Assembly (NCBI GenBank): GCA_039545295.1
Contig: BCIK01000020.1
Coordinates: 389,843-453,842, forward strand
DNA from: Udeniomyces pyricola
Lineage: Eukaryota; Basidiomycota; Tremellomycetes; Cystofilobasidiales; Mrakiaceae
Direction: 5' to 3'
Length of the DNA stretch: 64,000 bases
The notes below the pieces were generated by a model. It was not told where the DNA came from. It was given only the letters and a program-made list of their open reading frames with translations, and searched no databases. Shown piece after piece: positions 4,161 to 50,850 of this stretch (the stretch's first letter is position 1; each line of letters begins with the position of its first letter). The translations under genes were made by a program, and so were the position numbers.

Positions 4161-4913
4161 TGTAGGAGAAAAGTGAGGAGTTCGGGAGAGGGGGGAGGCG
4201 AATTGATGTGAAGGGAGGGGCAGAGAAGACGAGGGGGTCCTCGTGGCTGTTTGGAGAGGTTATGAGGTGAGTAACCTGAGAGAGTTGAGAGGGAGGCGAT
4301 CAGTGAGAAAGGGGACGAAGGAGTAGAAGCAAACCCAGAGAGGGTGGTGGGGGCGGAGAGAGTGGTCGTCGGTTGAGAAAGTCATGAGGAAACACGGAAG
4401 GAAAGCGAGAGTGAGCTGCGAGGCCAGTAGTCACTTGCTGCGCTTGACTATCCGCGCTTGATCTTTTTCCCTTTTGATATTTTCTTCTTCTCTTCTTCTC
4501 TTTTTCTCCGGGTCCACGTCCGTTCATCGCCGCCAGTAAGTAATTGATCCGTCCTATATTTGTTTGTTCCTCACATCCAAACCATGACGTCTTCTGCAAA
4601 GCAATGTATATATGTCACTACTCGTTCTGCGCCACCCTCGCGCGCGCCCGGCGGTCACCGATCGGGACACCGCCTCCTGAAGTTTATACTGTAGCCTCCA
4701 AAACCATGCAACGACTTTCAAACAATGTGTTAGTCTAGGCCTTGTACTCGACAGTCGAACATAAAACTTCTGGTCGCCGGGATACACCAAAGTCACAACG
4801 TTATCAACATAATGTTATCGAGATATCGGATATCGGAACATGATCTTCGAGAAACGACAGTGTGACGAATTAACATGTATAATACGAACTGCTCATGCTG
4901 CCTGCACATCTAA
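4161..4913. promoter_or_regulatory. Upstream region of the GT15 gene / 3' region of TRM10
   Basis: 753 bp holding the promoter and leader of the GT15 gene and the 3' UTR of TRM10, both on the - strand. It has purine-rich and pyrimidine-rich stretches (4190-4520). No defined regulatory site or credible extra gene was found. Confidence 0.5.
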
Positions 4914-6734
4914 TCAGCCATTCATCGCCATCTCCTCATCGGTCAGTGCGACCTTTGCCTCTCCATCCTTTGCGACCCTCGCGACCTCCTCTTGTTCCTC
5001 CTTTACATTGCCACATTCCTCCTCAACTTCCTCATCCCCGGCCCCTGAAGGGTTCGACATCGGACGGCCACCTCGGTTATGCCTTGAAACCACCTCGAAT
5101 TTACGCGCAGGGATGATCTTGGTGAGCGTCGCTTCCCAATCGCGGAGGGTAACCCAGGTCGTGAGAATCTCAAAAACCTGTTGTGATACACAAGGAAAGT
5201 ATCAGCGTCAAGGTTCTGTCAGCTATAGACACAGGCTCTGGAGAAACGAGACCAGAATAAAGTATCTAGGCATGTAAAAGGCGTATCCTGGCAAAACGAC
5301 AATATAAGAACGACCGATACGAACCTGATTGACAGTCAAGACCTTGCGCGTCGGCAGAGAAGAGAGGTACGTTCCAATGGGGAGTCTGGCTGTTTGGATC
5401 CCAAGTTTGTTGGCTTTGTCGAGACAAAGGTTCTGAAGGCGAGGCACGCAAAAAGGATTGGACGTCGGCGTCGAGTCAAGACAGTCAGTTGCAAGGTCGG
5501 CGACAAGCCAGAAGCAAAAGGGAACCCGGGTCCAATGTATGGCCGACATACTTTGTATCGATTGTGGTCGACGATTCCTCCGATGACGTACGTCATACCC
5601 TCCTCAAGCTCAGTAATTTCGTTCGGCGAGTCGGCAGTCAGGTAGATGACAGAGTCCCGAGGCGACCGAGAGGGAAGGCGTCCGATGAGCGGGTGAGGGT
5701 GGGTTGGTGCCGAGCCAGATGCGCTAGACGCGACAAGGGGAACGGTATCCGAAGCTTGGGGAGTTTGCTGCATCGATGAATCGTAGTCTCCGGTTGTGGT
5801 TGCTTCAGGCTCGATGGGAGCACTCTTCAGGATTGACGATGATTGTTCTATCAACCCATCGTCACCCTGCTCTTCCTCTGCACTGGTCCACATCTTTCCA
5901 CCCTCCTCATTCCAAAGACCATCCATTTCTTGCCCATCCCAACACTCGACCCCACGCCATCGACCTTTGGCTGTCTGCCAGTAGCTGTCTTGGAGACGCG
6001 ATTTGAGCTTGCCTTCGAGTCGCGTGAAAAGGACCGAACGGAAAGGTGATGTTGAGGTTCGATGATTGTTGTAAAGGAAGGCAAGTTGAGCAGACATGGA
6101 TTTGATCTCCTGGCGAATTGTAGACCGAGAGTAGCAACACGAGACATCAGATAGGAGAAGAAAGAAAAGGTCGGAAGTCGGAAAGTCAGGAGCGCGTCAG
6201 TCTGCTAATCCTGATATATTTGCCTTCTTGTAGTAGGTTGGAATTCGGACTCCAGTGCGGCCATAGACATACCTTGTCGACCATAAGATCATCGAACCCA
6301 AGATCGACCACAATCCTTGCCCTAAACCAATCGCCTTCTTCTTCCCCTTCCTCTCCCGCTTCAATCCTTGCAAACCTCTTAGTACCCTCGACCTTTTTCC
6401 TCTTCCTTTCCCTTTCCTTGTCGTGTCCATCACTCCCTTCGGGATGATCGTGAGCAGCAGCAACTTGTGCGAGACGTTTCTCCTTCTTGGCTACCTTCTC
6501 ACGTTGGCGTCGTTCGAGCTTTTGTGCGTGCCATAACGCTTCTTTGGCGATCTTCTTCTGGGCAGATTTCGAGAGGGGTGGCTTAGCGATGGAGGAAGAG
6601 GCAAGAGTGGCATGGGTGTCTGCAGTTGTCGTTGAGGTGGTTGTCTGGTCGGTACCGGAGTTCGAGCAGGATGAGGCCGCTGTGCTACCGACAAGCTGAT
6701 CGGAATCAGGCAGGGGGTCTGATTGGAGAGGCAT
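4914..6734 (-). CDS. TRM10: tRNA (guanine-9/adenine-9) N1-methyltransferase Trm10
   Basis: SPOUT-fold, SAM-dependent enzyme that methylates N1 of the purine at tRNA position 9. From the ATG at 6734: a Ser/Thr-rich leader, then a lysine/arginine-rich helical stretch (about residues 50-115, including KSAQKKIAKEALWHAQKLER) that in this family contacts tRNA. The catalytic domain begins with RIVVDLGFDDLMVDK and continues after an intron at EIKSMSAQLAFLYNNHR. The hallmark block SPNEITELEEG / YVIGGIVDHNR is intact. The next exon carries CLDKANKLGIQTARLPIGTY and RKVLTVNQ, and the last VFEILTTWVTLRDWEATL. The C-terminus is acidic (EEVEEECGNVKEEQEE) and ends at the TGA at 4914-4916. I count four exons. 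About 110 residues of Ser/Pro-rich insert lie between the YNNHR block and the SPNE block. Identity is confident; G9 versus A9 specificity cannot be read. Confidence 0.93.
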
Positions 6735-10089: not shown

Positions 10090-12867
10090 ATGGCAACTTA
10101 TGCTGCACTACCTACAGCGCCCGGCTCTCCCACTCACTCGATCGATTCTTCTCGTCCGCATGTCACCCCACATTCCCTTCGCGATCTCGAACTCGACTCC
10201 CCTTCACACTCACCACCTCCCCGCCCACCACGCCATACACGATCCGACACTCTCGGCAGCTTATCGGGCTTCAATTTTGGCCGTGCTGGAGCTATCGGAG
10301 GACTCGAAATTCCGTTGAGCTTGTCAGCGGAGGAAAGCGAGAGGAATGCAGGCAGGGAGCGGGGCAGCGGTACAGGAGGGGTCCCAGACCGGCATGTCGG
10401 GCTCATCGATGGTAAGCTCCAGCATCTGATTTATACTCCGTGAGATCTCGGACATGTGAGGCAAGTTGTAATCTCTATAGAATATAGCAACTCGGTACTG
10501 GTTGTTCTGTGACCTCCCTCGAGGCACTTGCTTCTACGTACACTATGAAAGCTCGACTGCGCCTCTGATCACTCTTATGAACGGTATCAGGTAGCAACTG
10601 ACCCTTCGGTTTTTCTTGACAGGAATTGCTCTGGTCGTCGGCTTGCAAGTCGGTAGTGGCATCTTCAGCTCGCCTGGTGTGGTCTTAGCGTCTGTCGGGT
10701 CTCCTGGGGCAGCTCTGGCGGTGTGGATCGTGTCTGGTCTGTTGGCGTGGAGCGGAGCGTCGAGCTTTGCCGAGTAAGTAGCTTTAGGAGGTTCGCATAC
10801 GTCTCGACCAATAACCGTGACTATGCGGAGTATAACTGTGTCGTTGACACAAATCCAGCAATCAGCCTCAGGATCGTTAAATATCCACGTGTTTGCATTT
10901 CCTGTCTACCCAGGCTGGGATCCGCTATCCCTTTGAACGGAGGCTCACAAGCATATCTCGCCTATGCATACGGTCCTCTGGTATCATATCTCTTTTCCTG
11001 GACGGCCGTCGTTCTCCTCAAGCCCGGCTCGGCTGCAATCATTGCCCTCGTGGGAGGCGAATACTTTACCAAGCTACTATACCACGCGACTGCCTCTTCC
11101 AATGCTTTAGCATCTCTTCCCGCCATCATCATTCCAGACTGGCCTCATAAACTCGTGGGAGTTCTCGCAGTGCTCGTAGTCAGCCTCGTCAACCTGCTCA
11201 GTACTCGGAGCGGAACTGGGGTCCAAGTTGTGTTGACGGTGGTCAAGATTGGATCGATTTTGCTCGTCATCGTTTTGGGACTCGTCGGCTTCGCCAAAGG
11301 CGGAGGAGGCGTCCTATCTGCAAATGGGTTGTTTGAAGGGAGCTCCCGTCAGATCGGATCGTATGCTATCGCGTTATATAGCGGGTTGTGGGCGTTTGAT
11401 GGATGTGAGTGGGATTTTGCTTTTCGTCTACGCTCGTCAGTTTTAACGTCTGCTGACGATCGACCACCGTTTTTGATTTGGTTTTCTTTGGGGCCTTTTG
11501 ATCGGGTATCCATCGAAACGGCATCTTTTTCCAGGGGACCAGTCGAATTATGTTGCAGGCGAGATGCGAAGTGTCACTCGTGACCTGCCCAGAGTTATCC
11601 ATGGTTCGATGACCATTGTCACGTTCCTCTTCCTCCTTGCCAACACCTCCTACTTTACCGTTCTGGACAAAGCTGTCGTCGCCAGCTCAAACACAGTCGC
11701 TCTCGACTTTGGGACTCAGATGCTCGGCCCAGCGGGTGGGATCTCCTTTGCGTGTCTAGTCGCGATCTCGTGTTTTGGAGCCCTTAACGGGTCATTTTAT
11801 ACAACGGCCAAGCTCATTTGCGCTCTTTCGCGAGAGTCGTTCATTCCCAGCTTCTTCGGTCGGCTTAGCAGCAGCAGAAAGACGCCCGACAACGCTATGG
11901 GTAAGTCGACCACATTCGTGCTGCATTTATGTTCTGTCGATTTCTAGGCTAACCGCTCATGACGCACTGCTTGTCACCTTGACACTCTTTCCTGCAGCCC
12001 TTCAGGCCACATTAACTATCCTCTATATCCTGTTTGGTCGCGGCTTCCGAACTCTCGTCAATCTCTTTTCGGTAGCACAATGGCTCTTCTACTTCCTCAC
12101 CGTCCTTGGGTTGTTGATCTTACGGTGAGCAGTGATATCTTATCAATCGGCCCGATCAGCTGAATGTGGAACTGTCAAGTCTGAATGGGTTCCATTGATG
12201 AAACCTTTTTTTCAAGAATCAAAGAACCTCATCTTGAACGACCCTACCAAACCTTCCTTGTAACACCGATCATTGTATGTATCGTTCTCCTCCCGACAAG
12301 GGGTTTGGGTCTCATATTTCAAGCATGCTGATACTTCTTGGTTGTTGATACTATGGCGACCAGTTCTGCGTTGTGTCTTTGTTTCTTCTGCTGATGCCCA
12401 TCGTGGCCGCACCAGGCGAAGCCATCGCGGCGTTCGGTGAGCCCCCTCATCTATGAGCTTGATGATGTGATGCTTCGTCAGCTTATACAGAAACCTGATC
12501 TTGAATACTGACTGTACCATCTAATCCTATCATCCACGGGGCGCTTGATTTCAATACCCAACGCTAAGCCTTCATTCTATTTGGAGTTCCACTATACTAC
12601 CTGACGGCTTCTTCCCGACCTCTGGATCAACCGACGACCTCCTCGGGTCCTCCTTCCCAGCTTTCTTTCAAGGATCGACTGAGCGATGGCTGGGACTGGA
12701 TTCAAGGGCTCTTTGCGCATCGGGATGAGGCCAGACGGGGACCGAGAGGGCAGCTCATTCGGTCAGGCATTGCGGGAAGTGAGATCGTGGAGATGGTCAG
12801 TCCGAGAGGGAGTTTGGATGAGAGAGAGAGGATGAGAGAGGTTGGTCGGACCCCGGTGGAACGGTGA
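10090..12867 (+). CDS. APC-superfamily amino-acid permease, LAT/SLC7-like
   Basis: Plasma- or internal-membrane amino-acid transporter (AA_permease_2 fold). Eight exons join in frame: 10090-10411, 10623-10773, 10914-11404, 11535-11900, 11998-12124, 12217-12274, 12364-12436 and 12569-12867, giving 628 aa. A hydrophilic Ser/Pro-rich N-terminus of about 105 residues precedes TM1, which carries IALVVGLQVGSGIFSSPG; GSGIF is the backbone substrate-binding loop of LAT carriers. TM2 and TM3 follow (LNGGSQAYLAYAYGPLVSYL), and TM6 has the second unwound motif AFDGWDQSNYVAGEM. RDLPRVIHGSM and IKEPHLERPYQTFLVTP complete the typical LAT pattern of about 12 TM segments. The C-terminal tail is charged and has Ser-Pro sites. 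Substrate specificity cannot be assigned; methionine or broad neutral amino acids are possible. Confidence 0.88.
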
Positions 12868-43380: not shown

Positions 43381-46300
43381 TCATTCCTCTAGGGTGGGAA
43401 TCGACGTGGCGGTGTCACGACCATTCCGGATGATCTCGTCGGCGGTGATGTTGGACTTGACGCACATGGAATGGAAGATCGAGGCCTCATCCCGGTAGAG
43501 CTCGAGGGGCGTCCCAAACTCGGCGACGCGGCCGGCATCCATTACAAGAATCCGCTGAGTGTGTTACAGGCAAGGTATGAGTGATATGTCGAAAGCAAGG
43601 AAGAAGTCGGGATGAATCGTAAAAGAAGCCGGACGATAAGCGATGTGCGGACGTTAAAAGGCCTAAGAAATTCCCGCGGGGCGATTGCTCCTTGGGGGGA
43701 AGGGAAAGAGAGACGTACGTCGTAATAGATGATGGTCCTCAGCCGGTGAGCAATCGTCAACAGCGTCTTGTCCTTCAACTCTCGAATCGTAGCTTGGATT
43801 CTTGCGTCCGTCTCGAGATCACACGCCGCGGTAGCTTCGTCCATGATGAGAATCTTGGCTTCTTGCCTAACGAGCGCCCGGGCGAGCGAGACAAGAGATC
43901 GCTGACCGACTGAGAGATTCGAACCTTCTTCTTCCACCACCATCTCGAGAGAGAACCGCTCTTCACTATGCGAGTGATCATCGGTCGAAAGAGAATCTGG
44001 CCCGACGAGATGGGCACGTTTGAGGGCCGCCCAGAGTTCTAACCGGCAGTCATATAAGAAAACGACGAGAAGTAGTCAGGAAGGGTCTAGATGGAAATAC
44101 CAGCCACATCAGTCAGGGAAGGCGACTTACGGGCATCGTCGTATGTACCGAACGGATCAAGATTCGATCGGATCGTACCAGAAAAGAGCAGCGGATCTTG
44201 AGGTATGATGACGATGGATTTGCGAAGGTCTCGAAGCCCGAGAGTGGAAATGTCGATACCGTCGATACACGTCGATCCCGACGAGAGTCTAAGTAAGGGG
44301 AGAGCAAACGAAGACAAAATTGTCGCAGAAAGATCCAAGAGCAGATAAATCCAGTCAGACCCTGAATGTCAAATCAGAACACATAGGGCAAAAGACGCAC
44401 TCGACGAGCCGGAACAAAGCCGACATGATGGAGGATTCTGAAAGAAGAAGGCGACACCGAACCAAACTGGTCAGTACGAGTCAACAGCCGTCACTGTTCC
44501 CTCACGTACTCATCGATACGTACTTCCAGCGCCAGTCCTATCGAAAGAAAGCATGTCAATGTACAGTTAGCAATGCTCTCCGCCCTCAGGTGTTTCTCAC
44601 AAGACAGCAGGTCCACTGAGAAAGATGGGCTCACCTTCCAACAACACCAATCTTTTCTCCACCGGTGATGCTAAGGTTGATGCCCTTAAGAACAGGTGGC
44701 AGGCCCGTTCGGTAACTCATGACGACGTCATGCATTTCGATCCCGCCCTTGGAGGGCCAACTGGCAGGTGGTTGGGTATCCGGTCGCTCGTACGCTGCTT
44801 CTTGCTCGAGGTCGTCGCCGGTGTACTTAGATATCCTTTCGGCACCGTTGAGGTTGTTCTAGATGGAGAAGAACAAGGACGATGAGAATCGGCGTGTTAG
44901 TTGAGAACGGATGTTGGCGAGGATAAGGCTATGTCATCAGGGATATGCCCGGATCAACGCACCTCGACTTCGGCCGATTGACGCGTCAGCATTCCGAACC
45001 TGTGCGAGCGTAATCGGGCCAATATCAGTAACTCGAGCAGCAGACTACCTAGGAGAAACGTGTCCAAACCGAAGAGACACGCACATCTGGACAAGGGAAA
45101 CGGTGTAAGTCAAGAGTAAACCGATTTGGGAAGGCGAAATCTCGCTCGGGCCGATAGCAACGAGAAGGGCAACGGCAAGAATGAGGAGGGCACCAATCGC
45201 ATCCATTCTAGTCGACCAAGGCAGATGAGAGTCAGCTTACAACGATGGAACCAACTAGAGGCAGTACCAGTGGATCACTCACCGGATAGCGAGCCATCGT
45301 TGTGTTGCGACATAGACGATGTAAGCACCTGAGAAGCAACGAAAGCAACAAAGAGGAATAAGCTGTTGATGTCTATTGTCTAGATGCATCAAAATGGGGA
45401 GGCCTGCTTACGATCCTGAGGAAAAGAACGAAAAGTAACAATCGTATGTTAGCTCAACTCGTGATGTTGAAGATGATCGAGAACAACGTGAACATGGTCT
45501 TACCTCGAGATCCATACGCCTCTGTTGGAAAAAGACAACACAGTGACCACCACCGGGTCAGCTCATCACCAAGGCGAAACTTTCTCAAGCGTGGTAGTAT
45601 TTGTCTGGAGCGTTGCGTGAGTTCCGCACCTCGTTTTCTTGAAGGAATCTCGCCGCCTCTCCATAGGCTCGAATCGTAGCCATGCCCGAAAGAGACTCGG
45701 AAAAGTGACTGTAAAGCAAGCTTCGGAGCATCGAGTCGATCCTCTTAAGCTCTCGACCCGACATCTGATAGTACCTCTGGAAGAGTCGGTAGCTGAAAAG
45801 ATGAGGAATGGAAGAAGACGCAGAAATCAGGGTAAGTATCGAGCGTAGGATAATGTGAGCCACTTCGGAGTTTGAAATTTGTTCTCACCCAATGATGACA
45901 AAGACTGCCACAATGATGAAGTAATGTTCAAAAACAGTAATCAAGATGATGGACCTATAAGAAGAAGTAAGATGAGCCCATTCAATTTTGGTGATCAAAA
46001 GGAAGGATCATGCTGATGTCAGAAAGGCAAACGTACCCGATAACATTAGCGATAGTCATGACGACATTACGAAGACTCTCAGGGAGAATGTTGTCTGTCG
46101 TGTCGAAATCCTTGCCAAAGACGCCCATGATTCGCCCCAGCGGCACAGTGTCAAAGAAGCTCATGGGAGCAAAGAAGATGCGGTGGACGGCCTGCTTGTG
46201 GAGATTGCGACTGGCGTAGAAAGAGAAGAACGCCATGGCAATTCCGACAACAAGAGTCATGCCGGCTTGAACGACACCGAGAAGGGCGTAGATGCCCATG

Positions 46301-49300
46301 TAGAGCGAAGTCGGTTCGTTCCAGAAGTCAGACTGCCACCAGACAATCCAGTAGCTGGACAAAACTTGGGCGGCTGTTGAGTGTCGGAAGAACAAGCGAT
46401 ACGCGGTCAGCCAAGAACCTGCAATAACAAAAGAGAAAGTTGGCACGCACTTTGCATGGCAATGCAGAATCCGAGAATCGTTGGGACTAGAACCAGACCA
46501 TAACCAGCTATCGTGTATGATTTGTAGACTAAGATGGAAGAAGAAGAAACAGAATGAGGAAACAGTCAAGCGTGCAAGTTCGTCGACGGAACTTGAAGCC
46601 AGCACCGACTCACCATCGCCCTTGATCGATCCGATCTCGCGAGCTTCGTTGACAATCAGTCGACCCTATTGAAAAGCGGTCATTGAGGGTTCAGAGACAA
46701 TCAGGCTTGAGGGCTTAAATCTTCCCGTCGTCCATCTGCCCAGAAGGTTATGTATATAGTACGTACCTCCTTCTTGCCCGTGCCTTCGGCAAGGTTTGCC
46801 GGCTTGCCCCTGACAGAACTCATCCTCTTCCTCAACTCTGGCTTCCTACCAAGCTTCTTCTCCTCGATTGCGTCAATCACTTGCTCATCACCATGAGCGT
46901 CTCCATCAATAGCCTCCTCTTCCTCCACCTGCTCTTCCTCCTCCTTCTCCTCCTTCTCACCACCGAATTCGATCATAAGTCGGGAAAATGGTCCCCTGTT
47001 CGAGAGCAGCTGAGAGTAGGTTCCGGCTTCGACGATTTTGCCGTGCTCGAGCGTGTAGACGTAGTCCACCTCGGGTAAGAAGTGAAGAGCATGCGTGATG
47101 AGGACGACGGTCTTGCCTCGGGCTCGAAGGTTGTCGACAATGGCGTTTTGGAAAAGTGATTTCCCGACATGAGCGTCGACGGCAGAGAGCGGATCATCAA
47201 AGAGGAGGATATCGGCGTCAAAGTAGAGGGCTCGCGCGATGTTAACCCTTTGTTTTTGCTATAGGGATCAGGAAAGGGAACAGCAATTCCGAGGCGGGAG
47301 GGTGCCATAGCAAATCAGCACCCAGCAGGAAAGGACAGGTCAAGACGAAGTTCTCAAGAAGTTATGACTCACACCCCCAGAAAGGTTGATGCCCTTTTCT
47401 CCGATTTCAGTCAAGTCTCCATCAGGAAGTTGTTCGTAGTCGGCTGGAAAGCAGGCGGATGATAGAAGCATGAGTCAACGTACGCATCAACTTTCATTTT
47501 GACAACTCTATCTGCAGGCGGGCATGGAATCAGTCTTGAAAGGATGTGCACGTACGGAGTAGGCATGCAAGTTTGACAACCTCCCAGTAGCGTTTCTCAT
47601 CGTAAGGTCGACCAAACAAAACGTTGTCCTTTAGCCTGAAAGATGAACCGATGCGACACCGGTTACTTCAGTCATCACTGTCCAATGACGTTCGCTTCTT
47701 CCGTGGTAGGAACAAAACCAGAGCAGAACAAACAAGAGTTGGAGACCAGGGTACGACTCACGTGGCGTTTTGAATCCAAGCGGATTGCGGACTGAAGTCA
47801 AGAGAGTACCAAGCTAGAAAGTGAGCATGCATTCGAATTGTTGGATTGAGAGGTCGCGCCAATCAGCTCCTTACCAGTAGGCAACTCGACCACTGAAGCT
47901 AACGCTACCGCTTGACAGCTTCATCTCTCCGATGAGCCCTTGCAGCAGACTGCTCTTTCCAGATCCGACGGCACCAACGATGGCCGTGAGGCTGCCCTTG
48001 GGAATGGAAATGTCGATACTAGGGATCTTGAACGGTTCTCCGGCAGCCTCGGTCAGTCGTTCTTTTTCTACTTGAGCAACGGCCGCTTTCGATCGAGACT
48101 TGGTCGTCGACTTCTTGAAGGAGGCTAGGTCCTGCTCAGGGAGACCAACCCATTCGAATGTCGCACTCGAGACTTGAACCGCAAAAGGCTGAGAGGGATT
48201 GATGGTGAGGGTTGTGTCCATGGTTTCGGCTTCGAAGAGCTGGAGTAAACATGCCGTAAGGATAAACGGACGGTAGGTCTCAAATTAGCAAGCTTCATCA
48301 CTGTCCGTGATATCGAACGAGCTCGACAATGACCTACTCCTGTGAGTCTCTTGGTGGCGTTGTACGCGTCGGTGAGCGCTGAGAAAGCCGTCGGAAGGAG
48401 CATGAGGGGTTGTCGAAGGAGCTGGAACAATGACAGTGCTGTAAAGATTCTGGCCGGATCAAGCGTGTGCCCGATACCGATGTAGCAGCAGAACGAGATG
48501 ACAGCCGAAAGGGCCGGCAGGGAGAAGGCAACCGCGGTATTGAGGGCTCGGACCATGAGGAGAGTTCTGCACAAAGGTGAAGTCCAGAGATGAGCTAAAT
48601 GCTTCGAGCGAGATTGAGCAGTGTATGTTCCAGTGTACGTTCGTGCACGACGGCTCTCACCGGATGCCAATGAGTTCCTTCCTTCGCAGCTCGTCGATCT
48701 TGTCTGCGTAAGGACCTTCAAAGACAAAGTACTTGATGACTCGCATGGCTCCAAGCAACTCCTGAAGGATCTTGGATCGTTGATCCGTGAACTCCATAGA
48801 CTTGGCTCGAACCTGCAAGGAAGATGTCAGATGACAAGTCGGTTTCAGTACAGGATGAAAGAACGAAGTAGCAGCAAAAATTGAAAGGTATAAACTGACG
48901 CTAATGGACTTTTGCATGGACCATGCTTGGACGGGAATGATGAGAAGGAAGAATGCGATACCAGCCAGGGCCGAAGGACCTGAGACCGACAGGCGACGGA
49001 AGAGCAGACGTGAAGTTAGAAAACACAACTTCCCGCAGCTTCGTCATCGCCTGACAAGTCGGGATGCACTCACCAATCTGAAGGCAAAGTAGAATTGTAC
49101 ACAGTCCTATTTGGAAAGGAGCAGCAGGGATCGATGGAAACCACATAGCACAGTAATCGATACGCGAGATGTCGGTCGAAAGGTGATTCATGAGGCGACC
49201 GTTCGAGTAGGTTGCACGGCTAGTGTTGGATAGGATGAGGGCCCGCTTGTAGACGGAACACGTTAGGGCGGCTCTCATCTGGAGGGCAAAATCAGAACCG

Positions 49301-50850
49301 AAGTATAAACATCGAGGGATTTGTGAGTGGAAAGTGACAAACAGCGCCGAAGAAACTAAGGATGGGATGGTAGAAGAGGAGACTCGAGCCCTCACCAATA
49401 CACCTGTCGTCATTCCTCTCCACCAAACCTGATGTTGAAGAATAGACCAAAGCATAGTCAAGAGATACTATATCGAGCGAGGTCGAATACAGGGAGAACC
49501 GAATTCGCAATGAAGATTCAGTAAAGCTAATGGGCAAACGAAGACGACTGATACGTAAAGTAAAATCCGCCACTGACCATGCCAATGGCGAGTCCAACCC
49601 CCTCGCCGGTCAAAGGCTCTGGCTGGTTAGAATCCTGTGCAGTTCTCTTGGATTGCGCGTAGCGGATGATGGCCTTGGCGAGTAAGGGCGAGGTAAGTTG
49701 ACAAGCTGAGGGCATAGAGCGGACCAAGGATTGTCGTTGACGTCGCAGTATCAGCGTAACTCTTGCTAAATCAGCAGATGCATGATCTACACAGGACGTA
49801 CCATCGCCGAAGATCTTGAAGACAATAGCTGACAAGTAAAAGACCCTGAACTGTTCGACGATGGCAAAGCCGAGGTTAGGCCGCTTCCTGCCCCAACCTT
49901 TCCGCCATTCATCTTGTTGCGTGGCTCGGTCATCCTTCTTGCTAAAGGCCCATCGCAGGCGGAGCTTGAGAGGTGGCTTAATTTCACCCGAGAGGAGGCG
50001 AGCGTTGTACGCGCCGGCGGTTCGTTGCCGTCGCAGCCAGGACTCATCGAGATTTTTGGACAAAAGTGAGGCTTCGCGAGAAGGGTCTACGTGCCACAGA
50101 TCGGTCGCTTGTAAGGGACGAGCATAGCCAAGCGACATGATAGGATGACACCAGCCTAAGATCAAGACGTTAGCAGCGTCATGTGGAGGTATACATATAA
50201 CAGCAGATGTATGTCAGTATAGGGGCACATGGGATCGGGCCCGAAAAGCGAAACCGAGGGAAGCGAGGAAGAGACGGCGACGTCCGAAGGGGTGTGGTGG
50301 GAAGGCATGAGAGGGGGCGGGGGAAGGACGGGGGGAGGGGGGAGGGGCGAAGGGAAAGGAGGACTCGACTATATGTCATATAACTCCATAAACTGCAACT
50401 GGCCAGAGGAAGTTCCCCTGTCTGGTCAAAGGTCTGTGGAGCTGGAGGAGGAGCATGGGTCGCTCGCCAGATCTGCCACCTGAGAGGTTGGATAGATGAC
50501 GGAAGGGCAAGTGAGAGAGGGGAGGTAAGCACACGTGGTCGTCATCGGGCGGCGCCCGTCTAGTTTGAGCTCCACTCGCGAGCGCGAAGAGCTCGATGCA
50601 ATCAACAGCACATCCAGTGACTGGTATGGTTACCGTTCGTAGCCAGAGTTGAGGAGATGACGTACCAGTGATGTCTGAGTCGATCGTCATGCGTGGTCGA
50701 CCGAGCATTGGTGGAGGTCGCGTGGTCCTTATCCTCCTTGGAGTCGAGGGTGTCGTCCTCGACGACCGTGTCGAGGGAGCTTCCGACGCGGGGCTCGGCT
50801 GGGTCCTTGTCGAACGAAGTGGGGGGATCAGCTGTAGGTATGGCAGCCAT
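43381..50850 (-). CDS. ABCC-type full ABC transporter, YOR1-like
   Basis: Membrane exporter of organic anions, drugs or conjugates; architecture TMD1-NBD1-TMD2-NBD2 without TMD0. The start is set at 50850 ([10 protein letters not shown]); in-frame ATGs also lie further upstream. The Yor1-type entry block [20 protein letters not shown] spans a splice join. TMD1 includes [23 protein letters not shown]1: Walker [11 protein letters not shown], then the usual signature region and [20 protein letters not shown], followed by an acidic linker. TMD2: [20 protein letters not shown] and [19 protein letters not shown]2: Walker A GRTGAGKSS, Q-loop [20 protein letters not shown], signature [16 protein letters not shown], Walker [11 protein letters not shown]-loop TIAHRL. 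The many exons include 4-nt, 14-nt and 18-nt ones. It ends TSIPTLEE at 43381. Oligomycin-type resistance is only a family inference. Confidence 0.93.
44524..44537 (-). other. 14-nt exon carrying the NBD2 Walker A core
   Basis: In the gene sense gactggcgctggaa, flanked by an acceptor (gatag) and a donor (gtacgt). It joins VVGR to KSSIMSALF as GGA AG|G ACT GGC GCT GGA A|AA TCC, restoring GRTGAGKSS. Without it the P-loop is missing and the frame breaks. Confidence 0.85.
45412..45415 (-). other. 4-nt exon (GATC) in the ABC transporter gene
   Basis: Flanked by cctcag and gtaagc. It joins MDLE to [14 protein letters not shown] as GAG|GAT C|GT GCT TAC, giving the family-like [17 protein letters not shown]. 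Omitting it shifts the frame. The neighbouring exons are 45504-45521 (18 nt) and 45293-45328 (36 nt). Confidence 0.7.

What the first reader, a model, noticed from the sequence alone, without database searches (positions are those of the whole stretch)
45293..45521. A 4-nt exon in an ABC transporter gene
On the - strand, GATC at 45412-45415 is bounded by cctcag and gtaagc. It is needed to join the 18-nt exon (45504-45521, RRMDLE) to the 36-nt exon (45293-45328). With it the product reads MDLEDRAYIVYVATQRW then LAIRMDAIGALL, matching the conserved ABCC TMD2 segment; without it the frame is lost. Exons this small challenge exon-definition splicing and would be missed by standard annotation. The splice sites and frame are seen directly; the use of the exon is inferred.
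Basis: partly seen in the sequence, partly recalled or inferred. Interest (0 to 1): 0.75.

Follow-up and report, generated by a model that had tools for sequence, protein, structure and literature searches.

The report
Four-nucleotide exon in fungal transporter gene
A yeast-like fungus appears to build one of its membrane pumps from an RNA message that must keep a coding piece only four letters long, which looks real and is rare but is of a kind already shown in plants and another fungus.

Summary
On the - strand GATC (45412-45415) lies between cctcag and gtaagc; the next exon is 46 nt (45283-45328), not 36. It sits in an open 30-exon, 1467-aa ABCC (YOR1-like) gene, 43381-50850. GATC plus the next bases encode D1090-R1091. 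R is found in 120 of 120 homologues aligned, D/N in 118 of 120, with no insertion there. A spliced-alignment program, trained without the target and the flanking introns, finds the exon by itself; blocking its acceptor costs 60 half-bits. 0 of 2000 shuffles reach the real score. In a limited enumeration no other path gives DLE-DR-AY without an insertion. Skipping gives a stop at codon 1137.

The novelty claim is weaker: a 4-nt exon in rice and 1-nt exons in Arabidopsis and Fusarium are in print, and the flanking introns are short (88 and 83 nt), so intron definition suffices. Nearest protein: Mrakia frigida (Cystofilobasidiales, reported as most intron-rich among fungi compared). Worth following: this gene's exon lengths fit random intron placement without a minimum, whereas the modelled parts of Prp8 and acetyl-CoA carboxylase have no internal exon under 58 nt. 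No RNA was available.

The parts
43381..50850 (-). ABCC (YOR1-like) transporter gene, 30 coding exons, 1467 aa, one stop at the end
   Evidence: Hand-made model, exon 5 corrected to 49396-49467; start and stop codon chosen by eye, the program covers 50682-43432; 70% identical over 95% to Mrakia frigida P0001 (query = the earlier 1454-aa model); Pfam ABC_membrane and ABC_tran over cut-off on the C-terminal 438 aa.
45504..45521 (-). exon 20, 18 nt, RRMDLE
45416..45503 (-). intron 20, 88 nt, gtaaga...cctcag
   Evidence: acceptor outscored by 3 of 81 introns; donor weak, outscored by 74 of 81
45448..45452 (-). branch-point-like CTAAC of intron 20
   Evidence: motif found; role inferred
45412..45415 (-). 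exon 21, GATC, 4 nt: codon D1090 and first base of R1091
45329..45411 (-). intron 21, 83 nt, gtaagc...ttctcag
   Evidence: acceptor outscored by 32 of 81; donor ATC|GTAAGC weak, outscored by 75 of 81
45358..45362 (-). weaker branch-point-like CTTAT of intron 21
   Evidence: motif found; role inferred
44524..44537 (-). exon 26, 14 nt, core of the NBD2 Walker A (R-TGAG-K)
   Evidence: R, T, G, A, G, K each 120 of 120 in homologues

Best explanation
GATC is a real, normally included 4-nt exon of a working ABCC transporter gene. Shown: the sequence, the sites, the frame, and the two conserved residues that, among the paths examined, only this exon supplies. Inferred: the two introns (88 and 83 nt) are recognised across the intron, one after the other, since U1 and the 3'-site proteins cannot both sit on 4 nt; the strong acceptor of intron 20 and first-come, 5'-to-3' splicing commit exon 20 to GATC before the acceptor of intron 21 competes; then GATC's donor is joined to exon 22. 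The exon most likely arose because two introns came to lie 4 nt apart in an intron-dense lineage; no role of its own needs to be assumed.
For: Spliced alignment (profile of 120 homologues without the target; splice matrices from 25 other introns of the gene) puts the exon in unasked at score 5865.7; with its acceptor forbidden the best is 5805.4, using a 13-nt exon with a donor of score -2.8 and three inserted residues. 0 of 2000 shuffles reach the real score. Of 21 in-frame paths without an internal exon and 5 with one, only exon 20 as given plus GATC yields DLE-DR-AY with no insertion. R 120 of 120, D/N 118 of 120, exactly two residues between E and A in 120 of 120. Without the exon the intron would be 175 nt; 2 of 81 introns are that long, median 104. 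Skipping, or retaining either intron, gives an early stop (codons 1137, 1199, 1098).
Against: No RNA evidence. Both donors are weak for this genome (intron 20: outscored by 74 of 81; GATC's own, ATC|GTAAGC: by 75 of 81), which could favour skipping. Intron 21 lacks CTRAY, which 58% of the 81 introns have near the end, and offers only CTTAT and a distant TTGAT. No orthologue DNA. 1722 of 2000 shuffles also yield some tiny exon when the frame demands one.
Confidence: 0.88

Rival explanations
1. GATC is optional: skipping is a regular product, and the frame-shifted RNA (stop at codon 1137) is destroyed, so inclusion sets the amount of transporter.
For: Weak donors on both sides of the exon; the skip product has an early stop at 45110 in exon 23. 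A switch-like microexon is known in Trichoderma Xlr2 (PMC11121469, passages seen).
Against: Its acceptor is outscored by only 3 of 81 introns; the joined intron would be 175 nt; nothing in the sequence that I examined shows regulation.
Confidence: 0.1
2. The 175-nt interval is removed another way: an alternative donor or acceptor, a 13-nt exon, or nested splicing of the stwintron kind.
For: Other in-frame paths exist: 21 with no internal exon and 4 more with one, one of which uses GATC behind a longer exon 20. Stwintrons are known in fungi (PMC8469720, listing with start of abstract).
Against: Each of these paths inserts residues where 120 of 120 homologues have exactly two; the best without the exon needs a donor of score -2.8 and loses 60 half-bits. 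Nested splicing was judged only by its end product, and paths with two internal exons were not enumerated.
Confidence: 0.05
3. The gene is decaying or the stretch is misassembled, and no true exon structure exists here.
For: A second odd donor in the gene (exon 2, gtcgag, score -6.1).
Against: One open frame of 1467 aa with Walker A and signature motifs in place, 70% identity over 95% to the Mrakia protein.
Confidence: 0.02

Closest known systems
1-nt exon of CYP621A in Fusarium (PMC12940212; passages seen)
   Same: Fungal gene; exon far below 15 nt, needed for frame and for a conserved motif; an unusually long 'intron' gives it away.
   Different: 1 nt, ascomycete, 20 orthologous genes compared and transcript reads; ours is 4 nt, one gene, no reads.
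Rice 4-nt microexon and other 1-15 nt plant microexons (PMC8831610; passages seen)
   Same: Same length; missed by annotation; loss truncates the protein.
   Different: Plant; confirmed by RT-PCR; many plant microexons are conserved across species, whereas ours is not found in three paralogues and was not tested in orthologues.
1-nt exon of Arabidopsis APC11 (PMC4674806; passages seen)
   Same: Same splicing problem; authors propose intron definition with stepwise removal.
   Different: Tested with GFP fusion constructs.
Microexons in Phanerochaete chrysosporium P450 genes (PMC1184071; passages seen)
   Same: Basidiomycete, small introns, tiny exons (shortest 6 bp).
   Different: Another gene family; no 4-nt exon in the passages seen.

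Membership tests
Ultra-short internal microexon (1-15 nt) | Flanked by two introns with canonical ends | tested here: met
   gtaaga...cag and gtaagc...cag, 88 and 83 nt; acceptors good, donors weak
Ultra-short internal microexon (1-15 nt) | Needed for frame and conserved protein | tested here: met
Ultra-short internal microexon (1-15 nt) | Present in mature RNA | not testable with these tools
   no transcript data held
Ultra-short internal microexon (1-15 nt) | Conserved in orthologues (for the plant class) | not tested
   no orthologue DNA fetched; flanking introns not at these places in three paralogues
ABCC transporter, YOR1-like | ABC membrane domain and ABC ATPase domain, Walker A and signature motifs | tested here: met
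   (C-terminal 438 aa); GRTGAGKSS, LSGGQ and LSVGQ in the protein printed; one of the 120 listed homologues is named YOR1
Stwintron | One intron splits a splice element of another; nothing between them stays in the mRNA | tested here: inconclusive
   no enumerated end product without GATC keeps just the two conserved residues, which speaks against it; nested splicing itself was not modelled

The most novel reading that the evidence does not exclude
In this fungus the smallest usable exon is set gene by gene and not by the spliceosome: in ABCC genes introns may lie anywhere, down to 4 nt apart, as if intron definition knew no lower limit, while core genes (Prp8, acetyl-CoA carboxylase) are purged of exons below about 58 nt. 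The transporter would then carry a splicing cost that core genes cannot afford.
Probability: 0.3. Interest if true: 0.6.

Novelty: new member of a known kind. Interest (0 to 1): 0.36.

Why it matters
It adds a well-supported 4-nt exon, of the sort that annotation tends to miss, in a basidiomycete, and a natural substrate for the old question of how close a 3' and a 5' splice site may lie. Together with the contrast between genes of one genome it makes testable whether minimum exon size is a limit of the splicing machinery or a result of selection for splicing fidelity. In practice, transporter genes in intron-dense yeasts may be mis-called without a search for such exons.

Tried and rejected
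Rejected: a general habit of tiny exons in this genome. I expected it and tested it with Prp8 and acetyl-CoA carboxylase; the modelled parts of neither have an internal exon under 58 nt. Rejected: a hidden microexon between exons 4 and 5; the missing residues come from a longer exon 5 (72 nt). Thought unlikely: stwintron or alternative sites.

Led nowhere: the C17 paralogue (L012) aligned too poorly to use (score 144.3) and was left out. Three literature searches found no paper (microexons, 4 nt, splicing, fungal; Xanthophyllomyces, exons, introns per gene; microexons, Cryptococcus, intron-rich). The first joined model lost its frame through a wrong donor that I had chosen for exon 9, corrected. 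The first run of the alignment program had a fault in phase-0 introns and is not used; repaired. One script stopped on N letters before its last table, redone with larger matrices; another stopped after printing its result, its exon coordinates were then typed by hand into. The program does not model exons that complete no codon, nor nested splicing.

Rows dropped: the 120 homologues are the best listed of 7967; the Prp8 profile used 70 of its 120 listed homologues, the first 70 shorter than 2450 aa. The Prp8 and ACC models lack the gene ends (Prp8 starts at profile residue 75, ACC at 35; the fetched stretches end inside or near the last exons), and ACC's last 21-nt piece, cut by the end of the stretch, was left out of the test. 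For the paralogues end pieces of the alignment were dropped (L009 exons 1, 23, 24; L010 27, 28; L011 31, 32) and pieces 20 and 21 of L011 were merged by eye after one search showed one open frame. The first and last piece of every gene was not counted as internal.

Full report
What is there. The correction is the end of the last one: it is 46 nt, 45283-45328. The gene around it runs from 50850 to 43381 in 30 coding exons and gives 1467 residues with a single stop; start and stop were chosen by eye. Pfam finds ABC_membrane and ABC_tran in the C-terminal 438 residues. The best of 7967 homologues found, with the earlier 1454-aa model as query, is a protein of Mrakia frigida, 70% identical over 95%, which belongs to the Cystofilobasidiales. 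The window's assembly has 25.0 Mb in 38 contigs. I did not identify the species.

Is the exon needed. I aligned the 120 homologues listed. Around the site they read D-L/V-E-[D/N]-R-A: E 120 of 120, D or N 118 of 120, R 120 of 120, A 116 of 120, with exactly two residues between E and A in 120 of 120. GATC plus the next G and T of exon 22 encode just these two, D1090 and R1091. In the five matches to solved ABCC chains shown (MRP4 and ABCC2) the same stretch aligns without a gap, though the residues differ.

Is it found without help. I wrote a spliced-alignment program. Its profile came from the 120 homologues without the target, its splice matrices from 25 other introns of the gene. It placed GATC by itself (score 5865.7); with that acceptor forbidden the best score was 5805.4, with a 13-nt exon, a poor donor (-2.8) and three inserted residues. 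Shuffling the interval 2000 times, its ends kept, never reached the real local score, 149.6 (mean 101.4, SD 11.5, maximum 146.3). Against this, 1722 of the 2000 shuffles also chose some exon of at most 15 nt, so a tiny exon as such is no proof. An enumeration, within the limits set in the script (at most one internal exon, of at most 60 nt, before the given last acceptor), gives 21 in-frame paths with no internal exon and 5 with one. Only exon 20 as given plus GATC yields the conserved string with no insertion; one other path uses GATC behind a longer exon 20.

Splice signals. With matrices from 81 introns of three genes (ABCC introns 2, 20 and 21 left out) the acceptor before GATC is outscored by 3 of 81. 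Three sites on both strands of the window score as high, and only this one has a donor as good as GATC's within 15 nt. The donors are weak: 74 of 81 outscore that of intron 20 and 75 of 81 that of GATC itself. Intron 20 has CTAAC 33-37 nt before its end; intron 21 has CTTAT near its end and a distant TTGAT, but no CTRAY near its end, which 58% of the 81 introns have between -55 and -10. The introns are 88 and 83 nt; the median is 104 (5%-95%: 83-156). One joined intron would be 175 nt; 2 of 81 are that long. Skipping gives a stop at codon 1137, retention of intron 20 at 1199, of intron 21 at 1098 (all).

How it works, in my view. With short introns the splice sites pair across the intron, so the size of the exon sets no limit beyond crowding. 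Crowding means that the two introns go one after the other. The strong acceptor of intron 20 is made first and would capture exon 20; the weak donor then serves intron 21. That order is inferred. The same scheme, intron definition with stepwise removal, was proposed for the 1-nt exon of Arabidopsis (PMC4674806, passages).

Where it came from. Of the four paralogous loci modelled, three align well enough to read. None has the two introns at these places: C6 has none inside DLENRS, C21 has one after DLENRA, and C26 has one between N and R and another after an 18-nt exon RAYFLT. So the flanking introns are not old in the family, or have moved; the C26 intron lies 1 nt from the place of intron 21. 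[quoted passage not shown] PMC5103461, passages).

Is it ordinary. In this gene 28 internal exons fit random placement of 29 introns in 4404 nt: at most 4 nt, 1 seen and 0.72 expected; at most 18 nt, 3 and 3.15; at most 57 nt, 8 and 8.84. A 4-nt exon is thus no surprise if exon size has no floor. But the modelled parts of Prp8 (27 internal exons, shortest 58) and acetyl-CoA carboxylase (26, shortest 84) of the same genome have none at or below 57 nt, with 6.1 and 5.5 expected; P 0.0004 and 0.0007, 0.0001 and 0.0010. The paralogues lie between: at most 57 nt, C26 8 seen and 10.1 expected (P 0.22), C21 5 and 8.5 (P 0.055), C6 2 and 5.6 (P 0.03). So two of the three paralogues lean towards a shortage of small exons as well. 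Other tiny exons with conserved content: 14 nt in this gene (Walker A, six residues each 120 of 120), and 9 and 15 nt in C21 (FQL: F 117, Q 97, L 118 of 120; VLDEA: D 117, E 117, A 116 of 120). A 7-nt exon in C26 is plausible but less sure. Four related genes against two core genes is a small sample, and density of introns differs too (123-166 nt of coding sequence per intron in the ABCC genes, 223 and 243 in the others).

What is known. Exons of 2-5 nt in several eukaryotes (cited in PMC12940212) and of 1 nt in Fusarium (PMC12940212), 4 nt in rice with RT-PCR (PMC8831610), 6 bp in a basidiomycete P450 (PMC1184071). I saw passages of these, not whole papers. I found no report of a 4-nt exon in a basidiomycete; the searches were made, in an open-access library only. 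Verdict: real by sequence evidence, a new member of a known kind.

Noticed in passing
44524-44537 (-): A 14-nt exon carries the core of the NBD2 Walker A motif of the same gene.
   Followed up: yes
50369-50370 (-): Exon 2 ends at a very poor donor (ATA|GTCGAGT, score -6.1); the intron is 214 nt. It reads like GTGAGT with one extra C, which might pair with U1 with a bulge (recalled idea, not tested).
   Followed up: partly
L010 (C21), reverse complement, 913-921, 5133-5147, 5240-5254: Paralogue with 9-, 15- and 15-nt exons FQL, DCKII and VLDEA; the first and third carry well conserved residues, DCKII less so.
   Followed up: partly
L011 (C26), 334-340 and 4431-4448: Paralogue with a plausible 7-nt exon and an 18-nt exon RAYFLT next to the place corresponding to GATC.
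   Followed up: partly
L017 and L018: The modelled parts of the Prp8 and acetyl-CoA carboxylase genes each have 28 introns but no internal exon under 58 nt.
   Followed up: partly
10657-11580 (+): Open frame matching Pfam AA_permease_2 over its cut-off; the nine other long frames sent in the same call matched nothing at E 0.001.
   Followed up: no
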